Positions 1 to 38,766 of a stretch of DNA of 64,000 nucleotides are shown piece after piece. A program made the position numbers and the translations under genes. Location of the stretch: the NCBI GenBank assembly GCA_017745235.1, contig JAGHZU010000006.1, forward strand, positions 62,001 through 126,000, written 5' to 3'. The notes beneath the pieces were generated by a model that did not search any database, was not told the origin of the DNA, and was given only the letters and a program-made list of their open reading frames with translations. The stretch is from Caulobacter sp. GTDB lineage: Bacteria > Pseudomonadota > Alphaproteobacteria > Caulobacterales > Caulobacteraceae. Numbering within the stretch: the first letter of the stretch is position 1; the number at the start of each line of letters is the position of its first letter.

Positions 1-1
1 A

Positions 2-1531
2 ATCGCCGTTGTGCCCGAGATCGAGATGCCCGGTCACGCCCTGGCCCCGCTGGTGGCCTATCCGCAGTTCGGCATGACCAAGAGCCCGCCGCGCGCCAAC
101 ATGGGCGACTGGGGCGTGTTCCCCTACCTCTACAGGCCCAGCGAGGAGACCTTCGGCTTCCTCAACGACGTGCTGGACGAGGTGATGGACATCTTCCCCT
201 CGGAATACATCCACGTGGGCGGCGACGAGGCGGTCAAGGACCAGTGGAAGGCCAGTCCCGAGGTCCAGGACCAGATCAAGGCCCTGGGCGTGAAGGACGA
301 GCACGGCCTGCAGAGCTGGTTCATCCAGCGCGCCGAAAAGCACATCAACGCCCGCGGCCGCCGGATGATCGGCTGGGACGAGATCCTGGAGGGCGGCCTG
401 GCCCCGAACGCCACGGTCATGTCCTGGCGCGGGGTCGAGGGCGCGGTCGCCGCCGCCTCGCAAGGCCACGACGCGGTGCTGGCGCCAGACAGCACCCTCT
501 ACATGGACCGCCGCCAGAGCGCCTCGCCCGACGAGCCGCCCGGCCGCATCAAGATCGTCACCCTCAAGGACGTCTACGAGTTCGACGCCGCCCCGGCCGC
601 CCTGACGCCGGCCCAGCGCGCCCACATCCTGGGCCTGCAGGCCAACTCGTTCACCGAGCACATGCGCACCGACGAGCGGTTGGAGAAGATGACCTTCCCG
701 CGCCTGATCGCGGTGGCCGAGAACGGCTGGACGCCGATCGAGCATCACGACTGGGACAGTTTCGTGAGCCGGCTGCCGGCCCAGGGCGCCAGGCTGGACG
801 TGCTGGGCGTGGCCCAGGACACCGTCCCCTACGAGCCCCAGGCCACCCTTCGTCCGACGGCTGACGGCAAGGTCTCTGTGGCCCTCGCCTCGGGCCTTGG
901 GCTGGGCGAGATCCGCTACACCACCGACGGCAGGGCCCCGACCAAGGCCTCGCCGCTGTACGCGCAGGCCCTGGCGGCCACGCCCGGCTCGACGGTCCGG
1001 GCTCGGACGTTCCTGGGCCAGGCGCCCCTGGGGCGCGTGCGCGACTATCCGATCAGCCTGGCCGCGGCCAACACCCGCGTGAGCCAGCAGCTGGAGCTGT
1101 GCGGCGACGGCATCAACCTGTCGCTCGAGGACGACGCGCCGGTGAACGGGCCGCGCGCGGTGTTCGCGGTGAACCTGATGAACCCGTGCTGGGTGTGGAA
1201 GGGCGCGGACCTCTCGGCCGCCCTGACCCTGACCGCCCGCATCGGCCAGGTTCCCTTCAACTTCCAGATCGGCGCCGACCGCGAGAAGATCGCCCTGCGT
1301 CCCCCGGCCACGCCCGACGGCGAGCTGGAGGTGCGGCTGGACGACTGCGCGGGCGAGCGCATCGCCGCCCTTCCGCTGGGCGCGGCCGCGCGGGGCCCGG
1401 CCCTGGGAACGGTTTCGGGCCGCCTGCCCGCCAAGGGCGGCGTCCATGACCTGTGCCTGAGCTTTACAGCCCGGAGCGTCGAGCCGACCCTCGTGATCGA
1501 ACGGGTTTCGCTGGCTCCCGGCAAGAACTAG
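2..1531 (+). CDS. beta-N-acetylhexosaminidase, GH20 (5' end outside window)
   Basis: Exo-acting glycosidase that releases terminal GlcNAc or GalNAc from chito-oligosaccharides or muropeptides, probably in the periplasm. The first visible residues match the GH20 barrel (PEIEMPGHA), followed by HVGGDEAV, which carries the catalytic Asp-Glu pair of the substrate-assisted mechanism, then GWDEIL and the late barrel motif LQANSFTEHM. About 190 C-terminal residues form an accessory part with a chitobiase-like C-terminal segment (IRYTTDG). The frame is open to the window edge, so the true start and any signal peptide lie upstream. The following PTS genes start 19 bases later, which suggests that released GlcNAc is imported by them. 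Confidence 0.93.
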   Translation: MAVVPEIEMPGHALAPLVAYPQFGMTKSPPRANMGDWGVFPYLYRPSEETFGFLNDVLDEVMDIFPSEYIHVGGDEAVKDQWKASPEVQDQIKALGVKDEHGLQSWFIQRAEKHINARGRRMIGWDEILEGGLAPNATVMSWRGVEGAVAAASQGHDAVLAPDSTLYMDRRQSASPDEPPGRIKIVTLKDVYEFDAAPAALTPAQRAHILGLQANSFTEHMRTDERLEKMTFPRLIAVAENGWTPIEHHDWDSFVSRLPAQGARLDVLGVAQDTVPYEPQATLRPTADGKVSVALASGLGLGEIRYTTDGRAPTKASPLYAQALAATPGSTVRARTFLGQAPLGRVRDYPISLAAANTRVSQQLELCGDGINLSLEDDAPVNGPRAVFAVNLMNPCWVWKGADLSAALTLTARIGQVPFNFQIGADREKIALRPPATPDGELEVRLDDCAGERIAALPLGAAARGPALGTVSGRLPAKGGVHDLCLSFTARSVEPTLVIERVSLAPGKN

Positions 1532-1550
1532 AACCCAAGGAAGCGTCCCG

Positions 1551-4064
1551 GTGTCCAATCTCGTACTGTCCTCGCCGCTCAAGGGCTGGGTCGCCCCGCT
1601 CGACGAGACGCCCGACGCGGTGTTCGCCGAGCGCATGCTGGGCGACGGCCTGGCCATCGATCCGCTGGGCTCGACCCTGCATGCGCCCTGCGACGCGCGG
1701 GTGATCGCCGTGCACGGCACGCGCCACGCCGTGACGCTGCGCGCCGACAACGGCGCCGAGATCCTGATGCACGTGGGCCTGGAGACGGTGGGCCTGGGCG
1801 GCGAGGGCTTCGAGGTCCACGTCAAGGACGGCCAGGCGGTCAAGGCCGGCGACAGGCTGATCAGCTTCGACCTGGACCTGCTGGCCCAGCGCGCCAAGAG
1901 CCTGATCACCCCGGTGGTCATCACCAACGCCGACGCCTTCCAGATCGTGCGCCGCGAGCAGGACCACGCCGCCGCCGTGGGCGACTTCCTGATGGAGCTG
2001 GCCCCCGCCGGCGGCCAGGCCGCCGTGTCGCTGGTGGCCGAGGGCGAGGTGGCGCGCGAGCTGGTGGTGCCCCTGGCCCACGGCATCCACGCCCGTCCCG
2101 CCGCCCGCATCGCCGAGGCGGCCCGCAAGTTCGCCTCCGAGGTGGCCCTGGTGGCCGTCAACCGCCGCGCCAGCGCCAAGAGCCCGGTGGGCGTGATGTC
2201 GCTGGCCATCCGTCATGGCGACCGCATCAGCGTCGTGGCCGCCGGCCCCGACGCCGACTTCGCCGTCGAGGCCATCGCCGAACTGATCGAGGGCGGCATG
2301 GGCGAGAGCGCGGCCCTGCCGCCGACCGCCGCTCCGGCGGTGGTGGTCGAGGCCGTGCGCGCCGCCCCCCTGCCCAGCGAGCCGGGCCTGCTGCGCGGCG
2401 TGATGGCCGCTCCGGGCCTGGCGATCGGCCAGGCCGTGCGCTTCGTCTCTTCCGACATCGCCGTGGTCGAGGCCGGCTCCGGCGCGGCCGCCGAGCGCGC
2501 GGCGCTGGAGGGGGCCCTGGGCCATGTCCGCGCCCGCATCGAGAAGGCCGCCGCCAAGGGCGACACCGCCCGCAAGGCCATCCTGGGCGCCCACCTGGCG
2601 TTCCTGGAGGACCCGGAACTGACGGCCTCGGCCCACCGGCTGATCGCCGAGGGCAAGAGCGCGGGCTTCGCCTGGCGTCGCGCCGTGGGCGGCTATGTCG
2701 AAGCCCTGCGCGGCCTGGGCGACCGCCGTCTGGCCGAGCGCGTGGACGACCTGATCGACCTGGAGCGCCAGGTGCTGCGCGCCCTCAGCGGCGAGGAGGA
2801 CGACACGCGCGCCCTGCCGCCCGGCGCCATCCTGCTGGCCGACGAACTGCTGCCCTCGCAACTGATGGGCGTGGAGGCGGGCCAGGTGGCCGGCTTCTGC
2901 ACCGCCAAGGGAGGGCCGACCTCGCACGTGGCCATCCTGGCCGCCGCCATGGGCATTCCGGCCCTGGTCGCCGCCGGTCCCGGCGTGCTGGACGTGACCG
3001 AGGGCGCGGGCCTGATCCTGGACGCCGAGGCCGGAACCCTGCGCGTGGGTCCCGACGCCGCCCAGCTGGCCGCCGCCCAGACCGCTCTGGCCGCCCGCCA
3101 CGAGCGCAAGGCCGCCGCTAAGGCCGCCGCCCACCAGGAAAGCCGCACGGCCGACGGGACCCGCATCGAGGTGTTCGGCAACGTCGGCTCGCTGAACGAC
3201 GCCCTGGCCGCCGCCGCCAACGGCGCGGAGGGCTCGGGCCTGCTGCGCACCGAGTTCCTGTTCCTCGAGCGCGAGACCCCGCCCGACGAGGACGAGCAGG
3301 CCCGCCAGTACCAGGCCATCGCCTCGGCCCTGGACGGCCGTCCGCTGATCATCCGCACCCTGGACGTCGGCGGCGACAAGGCCGCGCCCTACCTGCCGAT
3401 CCCGGCGGAGGAGAACCCGGCCCTGGGCCTGCGCGGCGTGCGCGTCAGCCTGTGGCGTCCGCACCTGCTGAAGACCCAGCTGCGCGCCATCCTGCGGGTG
3501 AAGCCGCTGGGCCAGTGCAAGATCATGGTCCCGATGATCGCCTCGGTCGAGGAGCTGCGGGCCGTGCGCGCCCTGCTGGACGAGACCAAGCGCGAGATGG
3601 GGATCAGCGAGCGGATCGAGCTGGGCGTGATGATCGAGACGCCCGCCGCCGCCGTCACCGCCGACCTGCTGGCCGCCGAGGCCGACTTCCTGTCGGTGGG
3701 CACCAACGACCTGACCCAGTACGTGCTGGCCATGGACCGGGGCAATCCCGAGCTGGCCGCCCGCATCGACGCCCTGCACCCCGCCGTGCTGCGGATGATC
3801 GCCCAGACCTGCGCGGGCGCGGCCAAGCACCATCGCTGGGTCGGCGTCTGCGGCGGCCTGGCGTCCGACCTCGTGGCCGTGCCCGTGCTGCTGGGCCTGG
3901 GCGTGACCGAGCTTTCGGCCACCGCCGCCACCGTGCCGGAGGTCAAGGCCCTGGTCCGCTCGCTGAAGCTGGACGATTGCCAGGCCCTGGCCCGCCGCGT
4001 GCTGGACCAGGCCTCGCCCGAGGCCGTCCGCGAGATCTGCAAGGCCTTCCAGGCTGGAGCTTAA
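1551..4064 (+). CDS. PTS EIIA-HPr-EI fusion (multiphosphoryl transfer protein)
   Basis: Cytoplasmic 837-residue protein that takes phosphate from PEP and passes it to the sugar permease. EIIA of the glucose/GlcNAc type spans about 1-150, with H59 and phospho-accepting H74 in ILMHVGLETV, 15 residues apart as in Crr. HPr spans about 165-250, with active H180 in HGIHARPA and a Ser-46-like S211. Enzyme I follows from about 280, with phospho-His H459 in GGPTSHVAIL, the PEP-site motifs LLRTEFLF and DVGGDKA, and C767 in VCGG. The start is GTG with AAGGA about ten bases upstream. The next gene begins at once, so the two are co-transcribed. General EI and HPr are built in, making this a self-contained PTS. 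Confidence 0.95.
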   Translation: MSNLVLSSPLKGWVAPLDETPDAVFAERMLGDGLAIDPLGSTLHAPCDARVIAVHGTRHAVTLRADNGAEILMHVGLETVGLGGEGFEVHVKDGQAVKAGDRLISFDLDLLAQRAKSLITPVVITNADAFQIVRREQDHAAAVGDFLMELAPAGGQAAVSLVAEGEVARELVVPLAHGIHARPAARIAEAARKFASEVALVAVNRRASAKSPVGVMSLAIRHGDRISVVAAGPDADFAVEAIAELIEGGMGESAALPPTAAPAVVVEAVRAAPLPSEPGLLRGVMAAPGLAIGQAVRFVSSDIAVVEAGSGAAAERAALEGALGHVRARIEKAAAKGDTARKAILGAHLAFLEDPELTASAHRLIAEGKSAGFAWRRAVGGYVEALRGLGDRRLAERVDDLIDLERQVLRALSGEEDDTRALPPGAILLADELLPSQLMGVEAGQVAGFCTAKGGPTSHVAILAAAMGIPALVAAGPGVLDVTEGAGLILDAEAGTLRVGPDAAQLAAAQTALAARHERKAAAKAAAHQESRTADGTRIEVFGNVGSLNDALAAAANGAEGSGLLRTEFLFLERETPPDEDEQARQYQAIASALDGRPLIIRTLDVGGDKAAPYLPIPAEENPALGLRGVRVSLWRPHLLKTQLRAILRVKPLGQCKIMVPMIASVEELRAVRALLDETKREMGISERIELGVMIETPAAAVTADLLAAEADFLSVGTNDLTQYVLAMDRGNPELAARIDALHPAVLRMIAQTCAGAAKHHRWVGVCGGLASDLVAVPVLLGLGVTELSATAATVPEVKALVRSLKLDDCQALARRVLDQASPEAVREICKAFQAGA

Positions 4065-35941: not shown

Positions 35942-36545
35942 GGCGATCTCCTTCAAGCTGGAAGCGGCGGCGGGATCGCCGCGTCGTTGGAGATTGGTTG
36001 AAGGGAGCCGGTCGGCGCTTCAACCGCCGCCGCGCCAGTCGCCGGCCGGATTTCGTGAACGGCGCGCGCCTGCCATTCACGCTTCGCCAGTAACGGCGAC
36101 GAGCTTCGGCTGAACGTCTGTTTCCTGGAGGGGCGCCAAGGCGGCAACTGGCGCGACGCGGCCGCGACCGGGCGCTGGCGCCGACCGGGGAAGAACAAGA
36201 GCGGACCTCGGTGCGCCTCGAAATTCCGGAGCTCCAGCGGGAGTGGGAGTCTCTCGCACAGAAGTCGCCTTCTTGAGTTCGACCTTAGGATGCCGTAGAA
36301 AGCTTCGCAGCCAAACCCGGCGCGTTTCTGACACTGGAAAGGAGAGCAGCATGCGAGCGACCTCAGCCCGCCAAGAAAATCTCCTTATTCTCCAGACTCT
36401 TCAGGAACAGATTGCATGGGCAATTTGCTGTCGGGCGATGTTCGTCGCCTGATCCCTTTCGGCGAGGCGAAAGCACCTCGCTAGTTCATCAAGAACCCGC
36501 TGTTCAGCCAGACGCCGTCGGCTTCCGTTCCTCGGGAGGGCCGTC
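35942..36545. other. 604-base gap before the RtcB operon
   Basis: No recognisable gene except a 33-residue ORF with a strong ribosome site at 36351. I found neither a sigma-54 site with correct GG/GC spacing nor an RtcR-type activator gene, although many RtcB operons use these. The upstream part is GC-rich with open frames but no family match. Confidence 0.5.
36351..36452 (+). CDS. candidate 33-residue peptide upstream of the RtcB operon
   Basis: ATG 36351 is preceded by AAAGGAG with six-base spacing, the best ribosome site in the gap. The peptide begins MRATSARQENLLILQTLQEQ and ends AWAICCRAMFVA; it is helix-prone with two adjacent cysteines. It stops 93 bases before the next gene. It could be a leader peptide that senses ribosome function ahead of a ribosome-repair operon, or a chance ORF. 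Confidence 0.3.
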   Translation: MRATSARQENLLILQTLQEQIAWAICCRAMFVA

Positions 36546-37034
36546 ATGCGCGCTGACATGTTCAAGGTCATCGTCGAGCGCCCGCGGTGGGGCGCTGGGC
36601 ATGCGTCCTCACCGAAACTGAAAAGGACCCCCGACCCGAATATTCAATACATCGGCCTGAAACGTCACGCCCACATCGCGACGCCCTACTCGAAATCGCT
36701 CAATGAAAACCTCGCGCCGCTCGTACGGTTTCTGCGAAGTCGGCGGGGGCGCTCATGGGACAGCGTGTTCAGCGAGATCTGCGCCACCCTCGACACCGGC
36801 AGCACGATCAAGATGCATGTGCGCGAGCACATTGAGGATTACGTCCTGACGCGCATTTCGATCGGTCGGCGTGGCGAGTGGATGCACGAGGGCGAGGTGC
36901 TCGGACTGGACAGCCAATGGTGTCGCCGACGGGCGTTCTTCGTCGATCCACGTGATGGACTCCTCAAGGACATCAAGGGTCTCGCCCAATGCCTGCCCGC
37001 CGCCAATCGCGGCGGAAAAGGCGGTGCGCTATGA
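36546..37034 (+). CDS. uncharacterised protein coupled to RtcB/PrfH
   Basis: 162-residue basic, soluble protein. Recognisable stretches are SLNENLAPLVRFLRSRRGR, WDSVFSEICATLD and VREHIEDYVLTR, a pattern I recall from conserved hypothetical proteins of diverse bacteria, without a known function. No catalytic motif or membrane segment. GGGAGGG precedes the ATG by five bases. The stop overlaps the rtcB ATG, so it is made with the RNA ligase and release factor. Its positive charge and Trp/His content would suit RNA or ribosome binding, but that is inference. Confidence 0.75.
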   Translation: MRADMFKVIVERPRWGAGHASSPKLKRTPDPNIQYIGLKRHAHIATPYSKSLNENLAPLVRFLRSRRGRSWDSVFSEICATLDTGSTIKMHVREHIEDYVLTRISIGRRGEWMHEGEVLGLDSQWCRRRAFFVDPRDGLLKDIKGLAQCLPAANRGGKGGAL

Positions 37035-38143
37035 GCCGGTCTCCTAAAATCACGCTGATCTCGGCGGATCCGTCCCGCCTGGATCCGGCCGCCATCGGCC
37101 AGCTCGAGGCGTCGATCCGCTATGAGGGGATCGAGCGCGTCGTTGGCCTGCCGGATCTTCATGTCGGCGCCGGGATCGCGGTGGGCGCCGCGTTCTGGTC
37201 GCCCGATCGTATCTGGCCGCATCTTGTGGGGGGCGACATCGGTTGCGGCATAGGCTTGTGGGAACTCACCAGCCCCGTGCGCAAGTTCAAGTTGGGGGCC
37301 GTGGAGCGCAAGCTTCATGGCCTCGACGAGGCTTGGTCGGGCGACATCCCCGCGGCCGTGGCGGGTTTCGGCCTGCCACCGAGCTTGGCCGGCCCGGCGC
37401 TGGGCACGATTGGCGGTGGCAACCATTTCGTGGAATTCCAGCGAATCGAAGAGGTCGTCGACGGCGGGCGTTTCGATGCGCTGGGCCTGAAGGCGGATCG
37501 TGTGTGGATGATGGTTCACAGCGGGTCCCGAGGACTGGGCCAAGCTGTTCTTCAGGCGCACAGGACAGAGCCCGTCAGCGCCGGGATGCTCGCGGCCAGC
37601 CCGGCGGGGCAAGCCTATCTGTCTAAGCACGATCAGGCCCAGGCCTGGGCCGTGCTGAACCGGCGGATCATCGCGCAACGCTTCTGCGACGCCATCTGCG
37701 CCGAGGGGCGGCCTGTGCTCGATATCTGCCACAACTGCGTGACGCCCCATCTTGGCGGATGGCTGCACCGCAAGGGCGCAGCCCCGGCCGACCGCGGGCT
37801 GGTCGCCATTCCGGGATCACGTGGCGATTTCAGCTATCTGGTCGAACCCATCGCCGACAGCGCCGACCAGGCCCTTTCGTCGCTCGCCCACGGCGCTGGC
37901 CGCAAGTGGAGCCGCTCGGACGCGCACGCAAGGCTGTCCGCGCGTTTCCGCATCGCCGATCTCCAGCGGACGGCGCTCGGCAGCCACGTGGTCTGCGAGG
38001 ATCGCCGGTTGATCTATGAGGAGGCTCCACAGGCCTACAAGGACATCCAGCGCGTCGTGGCGGACCTCGAGCACGCTGGCCTAGTGCGCGTCATCGCGCG
38101 ACTGCGCCCCATGCTCAGCTACAAGACGAGGACGACGTCATGA
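37031..38143 (+). CDS. rtcB: RtcB-family RNA ligase (PrfH-associated)
   Basis: 370-residue GTP/Mn-dependent ligase that joins 2',3'-cyclic phosphate or 3'-phosphate ends to 5'-OH ends. Metal and guanylylation residues are present: D69 and C72 in GGDIGCGIG, H132 in GGGNHF, H163 in HSGSRGLG, H234 in CHNCVTPH and the nucleophile H246 in LHRKGAAPA. It is shorter than E. coli RtcB, typical of the subgroup encoded with PrfH. That pair has been shown to release peptides from ribosomes stalled by a cut in the 16S decoding centre and then religate the rRNA. ATGA overlaps on both sides. Confidence 0.93.
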   Translation: MSRSPKITLISADPSRLDPAAIGQLEASIRYEGIERVVGLPDLHVGAGIAVGAAFWSPDRIWPHLVGGDIGCGIGLWELTSPVRKFKLGAVERKLHGLDEAWSGDIPAAVAGFGLPPSLAGPALGTIGGGNHFVEFQRIEEVVDGGRFDALGLKADRVWMMVHSGSRGLGQAVLQAHRTEPVSAGMLAASPAGQAYLSKHDQAQAWAVLNRRIIAQRFCDAICAEGRPVLDICHNCVTPHLGGWLHRKGAAPADRGLVAIPGSRGDFSYLVEPIADSADQALSSLAHGAGRKWSRSDAHARLSARFRIADLQRTALGSHVVCEDRRLIYEEAPQAYKDIQRVVADLEHAGLVRVIARLRPMLSYKTRTTS

Positions 38144-38766
38144 ATGAGGTCATCTTGCACCTGACGTCCGGGCAAGGACCGCAGGAATGTCGTTGGGTCG
38201 TCGCCCAGCTGGCGGCCGCCTACGTGCGTGAAGGCAAGGCCGACGGCGTCGCCTGCGAGGTCCTGGAAGGCGCTGAGGATCTTCCCTCATCGCTGTTGAT
38301 GCGTGTCAGCGGCGACCAGGCGCCGGCGTTCGTCGCCGGGCGCATCGGCACGGTTCTGTGGATAGGCGATAGTCCGTTCCGGTCTGGCCACAATCGCAGG
38401 AACTGGTTCGTGGGCGTCGCCGTCGCGCCGGAGCCTGATCTTGTTCCCGATTTGAAGGCTGAAGACATCGACTACCAGACCTTGCGTGCGAGCGGGCCGG
38501 GTGGTCAGCATGTCAACAAGACCGACAGCGCGGTTCGCGCCATCCACCGCCCTACCGGCCTGGTCGCCACGGCGCAAGAACAGCGCTCACAGCATGCCAA
38601 CCGCAAGTTGGCGCGACTGAAACTCGCCATGATGATCGAAGAGCAGCGGGGCGCGTCGCGCGACAAGGCCCGCCGATCACAATGGAACCTCCACCAACAA
38701 CTTGAGCGCGGCAACCCCGTCAGAACTTACACGGGACGCCGCTTTGCGCTGAAATCCACGATCTGA
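38140..38766 (+). CDS. prfH: peptide chain release factor H
   Basis: 208-residue release-factor homologue. The peptidyl-hydrolase motif GGQ is at 121-123 in SGPGGQHVNKTDSAVRA, and the surrounding domain ends in a basic C-terminus. The codon-recognition domain of RF1/RF2 is reduced to a short N-terminal module, as in PrfH, which reads a damaged decoding centre rather than a stop codon. Its ATG overlaps the rtcB stop. Together the two genes form a rescue-then-repair system against ribotoxins. Confidence 0.94.
   Translation: MNEVILHLTSGQGPQECRWVVAQLAAAYVREGKADGVACEVLEGAEDLPSSLLMRVSGDQAPAFVAGRIGTVLWIGDSPFRSGHNRRNWFVGVAVAPEPDLVPDLKAEDIDYQTLRASGPGGQHVNKTDSAVRAIHRPTGLVATAQEQRSQHANRKLARLKLAMMIEEQRGASRDKARRSQWNLHQQLERGNPVRTYTGRRFALKSTI

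What the first reader, a model, noticed from the sequence alone, without database searches (positions are those of the whole stretch)
36351..38766. RtcB-PrfH ribosome repair operon with an uncharacterised third protein
The sequence shows three genes with start/stop overlaps: a 162-aa protein, RtcB with all metal and guanylylation residues, and PrfH with GGQ. PrfH plus RtcB is a known rescue-and-repair pair for ribosomes cut in the decoding centre. The first protein has no assigned role but is locked to them by translational coupling. It could recognise the damaged 30S subunit, hold the rRNA ends together or control the pair. It is my best candidate for an undescribed part of a known system.
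Basis: partly seen in the sequence, partly recalled or inferred. Interest (0 to 1): 0.75.

Follow-up and report, generated by a model that had tools for sequence, protein, structure and literature searches.

The report
Partner protein of RtcB RNA ligases
Beside a known pair of enzymes that rescue and repair broken ribosomes lies a small, undescribed basic protein whose relatives often sit next to RtcB RNA-repair ligases of two kinds, and the gene set opens with a tiny conserved leader frame, so it may be an overlooked helper of RNA repair.

Summary
In detail: a 162-aa protein (X162, 36546-37034), RtcB2 and PrfH overlap by ATGA and look intact. The reading changes in two ways. (1) X162 goes with RtcB ligases rather than with PrfH, and not always. 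Of 80 relatives, 32 adjoin RtcB2, 21 a canonical RtcB without PrfH, 19 neither, and 8 lie at contig ends. In four genome samples it adjoins RtcB in 4 of 4, 7 of 7, 2 of 7 and 0 of 4 genomes that have it. Only 3 of 11 RtcB2 loci in Sphingomonadales have it. No family or fold searched matches it. (2) The operon opens earlier, at 36351, with a conserved 33-codon leader that overlaps a second short frame and a covarying hairpin. A leader was called in 32 of 34 X162+RtcB2 loci, 13 of 25 RtcB2 loci without X162 and 0 of 19 canonical rtcB genes. A leader peptide is described for the RtcB-like armZ of Pseudomonas. Most likely X162 is an RtcB accessory factor in a leader-controlled operon (inferred). 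Against it: nine genomes have X162 but no RtcB was found.

The parts
36336..36344 (+). Shine-Dalgarno-like GGAAAGGAG of leader frame A
   Evidence: read in the sequence; a Shine-Dalgarno-like site was required for the leader calls
36351..36452 (+). Leader frame A, 33 codons: MRATSARQENLLILQTLQEQIAWAICCRAMFVA*
   Evidence: same frame and end conserved upstream of X162+RtcB2 and of some RtcB2 loci without X162; pN/pS 0.67 in frame against 0.85 and 1.07 in the other frames, 20 loci
36416..36484 (+). Short frame B, 22 codons: MGNLLSGDVRRLIPFGEAKAPR*, behind AGGAA at 36403-36407
   Evidence: ATGGGCA and the AGGA behind it are conserved; the same frame is the N-terminus of RtcB2 in L123, L124 and L159-L162; pN/pS 0.68 against 1.13 and 1.26, 20 loci
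36433..36450 (+). Six-pair hairpin, arms 36433-36438 and 36445-36450, ending in the stop codon of frame A
   Evidence: 97.8% of 180 cells paired in 30 distinct sequences; covariation score and cells changed on both sides above all 500 shuffles; number of pairs changed on both sides (2) reached in 107 of 500
36534..36540 (+). Shine-Dalgarno-like GGGAGGG of X162
   Evidence: sequence; predicted to be partly paired, but no more than in shuffles
36546..37034 (+). X162, 162 aa, pI 10.1, no known family
37031..38143 (+). RtcB2 RNA ligase, 370 aa
38140..38766 (+). PrfH, peptide chain release factor H, 208 aa

Best explanation
X162 is an optional accessory protein of RtcB RNA ligases. Shown: a conserved, basic family that in many genomes sits beside one of two different kinds of RtcB, before or after it. 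Inferred: it binds RNA or the ligase and helps RtcB act on broken RNA, for example by holding or presenting the ends. In this operon the substrate would be 16S rRNA cut in the decoding centre: PrfH frees the stuck peptide, RtcB2 reseals the rRNA, X162 assists the resealing. The operon is probably kept low until ribosomes stall on leader frame A, whose end, stop codon and hairpin overlap the next start site (inferred from conservation and from the Pseudomonas armZ precedent; no step of this was tested).
For: 53 of 72 judgeable relatives adjoin an RtcB, on the same strand, gap at most 700 bases: 32 RtcB2 and 21 canonical. All 4 X162 genomes among 246 Sphingomonadales and all 7 among 151 of the order of Lysobacter have it beside RtcB; one genome of each sample was the chosen centre, so 9 of 9 are new draws, and one of the 7 has a stop inside the X162 match. 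The canonical contexts include RlaP, Band_7 and SIMPL genes. X162 groups with canonical RtcB fall in parts of the tree other than the RtcB2 group, with other gene orders, which suggests repeated pairing. All 79 members over 120 aa have pI 9.1 or more, and an HxxxHxx[DQEH] motif is in 79 of 80. Leader: 32 of 34, 13 of 25, 0 of 19, and 44 of 45 members of one tree group against 1 of 35 others. A leader peptide, PA5471.1, is proposed to control the RtcB-like armZ in Pseudomonas, with prfH adjacent to armZ (PMC12057347, passages).
Against: 19 of 72 judgeable relatives adjoin no RtcB. In the Alphaproteobacteria sample only 2 of 7 do (the window and L003), with up to 1.5 kb held on each side; in the Planctomycetota sample 0 of 4. 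Of 27 genomes searched because of their X162 locus, 9 gave no RtcB match, 7 of them of the Henriciella/Hyphomonas kind whose X162 has the leader. X162 is missing from most RtcB genomes (present in 11 of 90 in the two order samples). In the window's own genome the canonical RtcB on another contig has no X162, as X162 occurs once. No structural or biochemical evidence of binding to RtcB or RNA was obtained.
Confidence: 0.45

Rival explanations
1. X162 is an independent ribosome-stress factor. It shares the leader and the occasion with RtcB systems but works on its own, for instance by binding damaged or stalled ribosomes or loose RNA ends.
For: Close relatives keep X162 and the leader without RtcB in the genome: 7 Henriciella/Hyphomonas-type genomes without an RtcB match. 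Three loci, L024, L028 and L032, keep X162 where close kin have RtcB2 beside it, though L028's protein is shortened.
Against: Canonical-RtcB-linked members lack the leader upstream of X162 and still adjoin RtcB, which needs another reason. Most of these orphan genomes are MAGs, so an RtcB could be missed.
Confidence: 0.2
2. X162 recognises the cut 30S subunit or works with PrfH.
For: 29 of the 32 RtcB2-adjacent relatives have PrfH on the held sequence, and the genes overlap.
Against: 21 relatives adjoin a canonical RtcB with no PrfH beside it; 8 of 11 Sphingomonadales RtcB2 loci do without X162.
Confidence: 0.15
3. X162 regulates the genes beside it, as a nucleic-acid-binding repressor or activator.
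Against: Those scores are within the range of chance and tied with unrelated folds; no family of DNA-binding regulators matches by sequence.
Confidence: 0.12
4. X162 is a passenger without a role in RNA repair.
For: Present in 11 of 90 RtcB-holding genomes of the two order samples and often away from RtcB in the wider class (2 of 7 adjacent).
Against: Adjacency to two kinds of RtcB in different gene orders and 17 invariant positions in 59 sequences.
Confidence: 0.08

Closest known systems
Two-gene RtcB2-PrfH operon of E. coli and others (PMC9223846 and PMC1586002, passages read)
   Same: RtcB2 and PrfH with overlapping ends and intact motifs
   Different: An extra first gene, X162; the passages read describe two genes only
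Leader peptide PA5471.1 upstream of the RtcB-like armZ, with PA5470/prfH adjacent, in Pseudomonas aeruginosa (PMC12057347, passages read)
   Same: Short leader frame ahead of an RtcB-type gene with prfH next to it
   Different: Here frame A overlaps a second frame and a hairpin; no + strand terminator was found, while transcription attenuation is proposed there; the Pseudomonas sequence was not compared
Unnamed RFH/RtcB-associated domains (RFR) of Burroughs and Aravind 2019 (PMC6514570, passages read)
   Same: Extra proteins beside RFH-RtcB
   Different: The passages describe TPR, Pol-beta NTase, zinc-ribbon and highly charged helical proteins; X162 shows no match to known domains, and their supplementary list could not be opened
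Archease, the known RtcB cofactor (recalled)
   Same: Small protein encoded beside RtcB in some genomes
   Different: No archease model among the Pfam matches of X162 at E<=1; archease in 0 of 12 X162 genomes and 5 of 49 RtcB genomes without X162, too few to claim replacement

Membership tests
RtcB2 (RtcB of the PrfH operon) | Score above the curated cut-offs NF007153 and TIGR03073 | tested here: met
   444.9 bits (cut-off 407) and 404.7 bits (cut-off 271.8)
RtcB2 (RtcB of the PrfH operon) | Active-site motifs of RtcB | tested here: met
   alignment to solved RtcB chains, (roles of the residues recalled)
RtcB2 (RtcB of the PrfH operon) | Ligates RNA ends | not testable with these tools
   needs an assay
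PrfH | Score above TIGR03072 cut-off, GGQ present | tested here: met
   209.2 bits (cut-off 166.65); GGQ
Known protein family for X162 | Match in Pfam, NCBIfam, PHROGs or PADLOC | tested here: not met
   none at E<=1 for X162
Known fold for X162 | Structural match to a solved fold | tested here: inconclusive
Archease-like RtcB cofactor | Stimulates RtcB | not testable with these tools
   needs an assay
Leader-controlled operon (PA5471.1/armZ type) | Conserved short leader frame with Shine-Dalgarno upstream of the first gene | tested here: met
Leader-controlled operon (PA5471.1/armZ type) | Terminator between leader and operon (transcription attenuation) | tested here: not met
   no + strand terminator-like site at 36050-37100; control of translation remains possible
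Leader-controlled operon (PA5471.1/armZ type) | Induction by stalled or damaged ribosomes | not testable with these tools
   needs a reporter assay
RFR domains of Burroughs and Aravind | Presence in their supplementary list | not tested
   supplements not open; 2016 paper not held

The most novel reading that the evidence does not exclude
Leader-controlled X162 is a ribosome-damage response factor in its own right. Ribosomes that fail near the end of leader frame A leave the hairpin and the next start site open, X162 is made first and binds broken rRNA or other RNA ends, and the protein was paired several times with whichever RtcB was at hand, some lineages keeping X162 alone. That would be a new RNA-end-binding family together with a sensor of ribosome damage shared by many RtcB2-PrfH operons.
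Probability: 0.2. Interest if true: 0.85.

Novelty: new variant of a known kind. Interest (0 to 1): 0.58.

Why it matters
As far as I recall, few partners of bacterial RtcB ligases are known. A conserved basic protein that adjoins both the general RNA-repair RtcB and the ribosome-repair RtcB2 could be a shared helper and can be tested at once in ligation assays. The leader would offer a way for cells to switch rRNA repair on when ribosomes are hurt; similar short leaders were called ahead of rtcB2 in E. coli, Proteus and several Alphaproteobacteria, beyond the Pseudomonas armZ case described in print.

Tried and rejected

I first took the conserved CATGGGCAATT...CGCCTGA stretch as an RNA motif, then as the end of one leader peptide; searches show two overlapping frames plus a hairpin. 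The leaders called in L079, L081 and L086 are the tail of the Band_7 gene and should be dropped, leaving 10 of 45 in group C. The leader called in L153 resembles no other and may be chance. The groups hold near-identical rows (for example L156 and L157), so they are not independent. One search used a looser Shine-Dalgarno rule and rejected frames with a long open run upstream: 44 of 45 (shuffles expect 2.4) and 1 of 35 (expect 2.3); the exceptions are L040, whose leader one search did find, and L057, a frame inside rtcB.

Hiding of the X162 Shine-Dalgarno in a hairpin: mean pairing 0.81 in the leader group and 0.52 elsewhere, but 0.76 in shuffles of the leader group's own sequences, so not established. 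Replacement of archease: 0 of 12 against 5 of 49, no conclusion.

Full report
What is there. On the + strand, X162 (36546-37034), RtcB2 (37031-38143) and PrfH (38140-38766) overlap by four bases each. RtcB2 and PrfH pass their curated cut-offs and keep the active-site motifs and GGQ. X162 has no family name. The window's genome holds one X162 and, besides RtcB2, one canonical RtcB on another contig.

The family of X162. A scan of genome contigs with a seven-sequence alignment matched 232 stretches; 189 encode relatives and the best 80 were kept, so the 109 more distant ones were not seen. Members share MRxDMxKVIVERPR, LNENLxPLxRYL, a helix with two histidines and a VDP motif. HxxxHxx[DQEH] occurs in 79 of 80, and all 79 over 120 aa have pI 9.1 or more. 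Forty-three of the 80 are 230 aa or longer, with a C-terminal extension, and 36 are under 175 aa (loci cut by contig ends included). Predicted models have a poorly predicted N-terminal tail and a better core, with no convincing structural match.

Neighbours of the 80 relatives. Thirty-two adjoin RtcB2 and 21 a canonical RtcB (same strand, gap at most 700 bases); 1 has an RtcB elsewhere in the locus, 18 have none in the locus, and 8 lie within 1.5 kb of a contig end. Grouped at 75% identity, 51 representatives give 15, 18, 1, 10 and 7. Of the 32, 29 show PrfH on the held sequence. The canonical contexts include RtcB-X162-RlaP (L049; L043 with a SIMPL gene between) and Band_7-X162-RtcB (Lysobacter and Pseudoxanthomonas).

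Samples drawn by taxonomy. Among 246 Sphingomonadales, 4 have X162 and 34 an RtcB match (found with the RtcB2 protein, so a lower bound); all 4 X162 genes lie next to one, 3 to RtcB2 and 1 to a canonical RtcB. Among 151 genomes of the order of Lysobacter, 7 have X162 and 56 an RtcB; all 7 lie 20 to 329 bases from it, and one has a stop inside the match. One genome in each sample was the centre, chosen for its X162. Among 289 Alphaproteobacteria, 7 have X162, but only the window and L003 have RtcB in the held flanks; L002 and L004-L007 have none within up to 1.5 kb, two of them with a side cut short by a contig end. Among 109 Planctomycetota, 4 have a match, two of them weak, and none shows RtcB in the held flanks. 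So the link to RtcB is strong in some groups and weak in others.

X162 is optional. RtcB2 is in 11 of the 246 Sphingomonadales and 3 of these have X162. In the window's class 5 of 385 genomes have PrfH over cut-off, and 2 of the 5 show X162.

Genomes without RtcB. Of 28 loci named, 27 genomes could be searched for RtcB (three of them, L021, L063 and L066, have RtcB next to X162); 18 hold an RtcB and 9 do not. Seven of the nine are Henriciella/Hyphomonas-type genomes (L040, L042, L044-L048), the others L028, whose X162 is shortened to 125 aa, and L084. Most are MAGs.

History. A tree of the 80 has one strongly supported group of 45 that holds all 32 RtcB2-linked members, 10 without RtcB and 3 at contig ends. 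The canonical-RtcB members fall in two other groups, and X162 lies after RtcB in one and before it in the other, but for L055. This fits repeated pairing, though the root is only a midpoint.

The leader. A scan for ATG frames of 10-40 codons with a Shine-Dalgarno and a stop at least 25 bases before the first gene called a leader in 32 of 34 X162+RtcB2 loci (0.39 expected from shuffles), 13 of 25 RtcB2 loci without X162 (0.64), 13 of 45 X162 loci not linked to RtcB2 (1.06; three are Band_7 tails) and 0 of 19 canonical rtcB genes (0.37). The two missed in the first set, L034 and L036, have the same peptide. E. coli, Proteus, Klebsiella-plasmid, Tritonibacter and Shinella rtcB2 loci are among those with a leader. 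Within the 80, 44 of the 45 members of the tree group have a leader and 1 of the 35 others. In the window group the peptide is 31-34 codons and most often ends in a WAI...A* pattern. Its last part overlaps a second frame that begins ATGGGCA behind a conserved AGGA; in L123, L124 and L159-L162 that frame is the beginning of RtcB2. Codon statistics favour frame A before this start and frame B after it, without a test of significance. A six-pair hairpin there is conserved in 30 distinct sequences: 97.8% of cells paired, covariation score and doubly changed cells above all 500 shuffles, while the number of pairs changed on both sides (2) was reached in 107 of 500. No + strand terminator was found, so control of translation seems likelier than of transcription.

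How it may work. In print: PrfH releases peptide from ribosomes cut by colicin E3, RtcB2 religates the 16S rRNA, and the pair protects E. coli ATCC25922 from colicin E3 (PMC9223846, passages). In Pseudomonas a leader peptide upstream of the RtcB-like armZ is proposed to act by transcriptional attenuation with impaired ribosomes (PMC12057347, passages). Inferred: ribosomes that stall on this leader expose the next start site, so the operon is made when ribosomes are damaged, and X162 then assists the ligase. Because X162 also adjoins canonical RtcB, I think it handles RNA ends or the ligase rather than the cut 30S subunit as such.

Novelty. Library searches (PrfH with RtcB; RNA repair, RtcB, TROVE and gene neighbourhood; leader peptide, RtcB and attenuation; PrfH with leader peptide; PA5471.1; RtcB with RlaP and uncharacterized protein; rtcB2 with prfH) showed no title or abstract start naming such a third protein or a general rtcB2 leader; one search listed 12 of 470 papers. 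I read passages of six papers only. Burroughs and Aravind name unknown RFH/RtcB-associated domains (PMC6514570, passages), their 2016 paper was not held and supplements were closed, so X162 may be listed there. I call it a new variant of a known kind.

Noticed in passing
L156 about 1345-1495, L157, L158, L155, L151: rtcB2 of E. coli, Proteus, a Klebsiella plasmid and one unnamed gammaproteobacterium is preceded by a 13-15 codon frame (E. coli: MTNPLSMTLCRPFQD*) whose Shine-Dalgarno is predicted to pair with its own codons. The E. coli stretch is found in 5359 of 5426 genomes.
   Followed up: partly
L155 (NZ_CP086440.1): RtcB2-PrfH lies on a conjugative IncC plasmid record of Klebsiella, close to sul1.
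   Followed up: no
L161 (NZ_OZ000531.1) 1-3235: In a Shinella plasmid another RtcB-family gene lies directly upstream of RtcB2-PrfH.
   Followed up: no
L017 and L020: Nearly identical loci in two pond MAGs labelled Planctomyces and Alphaproteobacteria; the Planctomyces label is probably a binning error.
   Followed up: no
G932, G976, G1026, G1029, G1069: The five archease genes found lie next to the five highest-scoring RtcB genes of the Lysobacter-order sample, a type other than the RtcB beside X162.
   Followed up: no
L024, L028, L032: X162 and the leader are kept where close kin have RtcB2-PrfH next to them; in L028 X162 is shortened to 125 aa.
   Followed up: partly
L014 and L015, downstream of PrfH: RtcA and a canonical RtcB follow RtcB2-PrfH on the opposite strand, so both repair systems lie side by side.
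   Followed up: no
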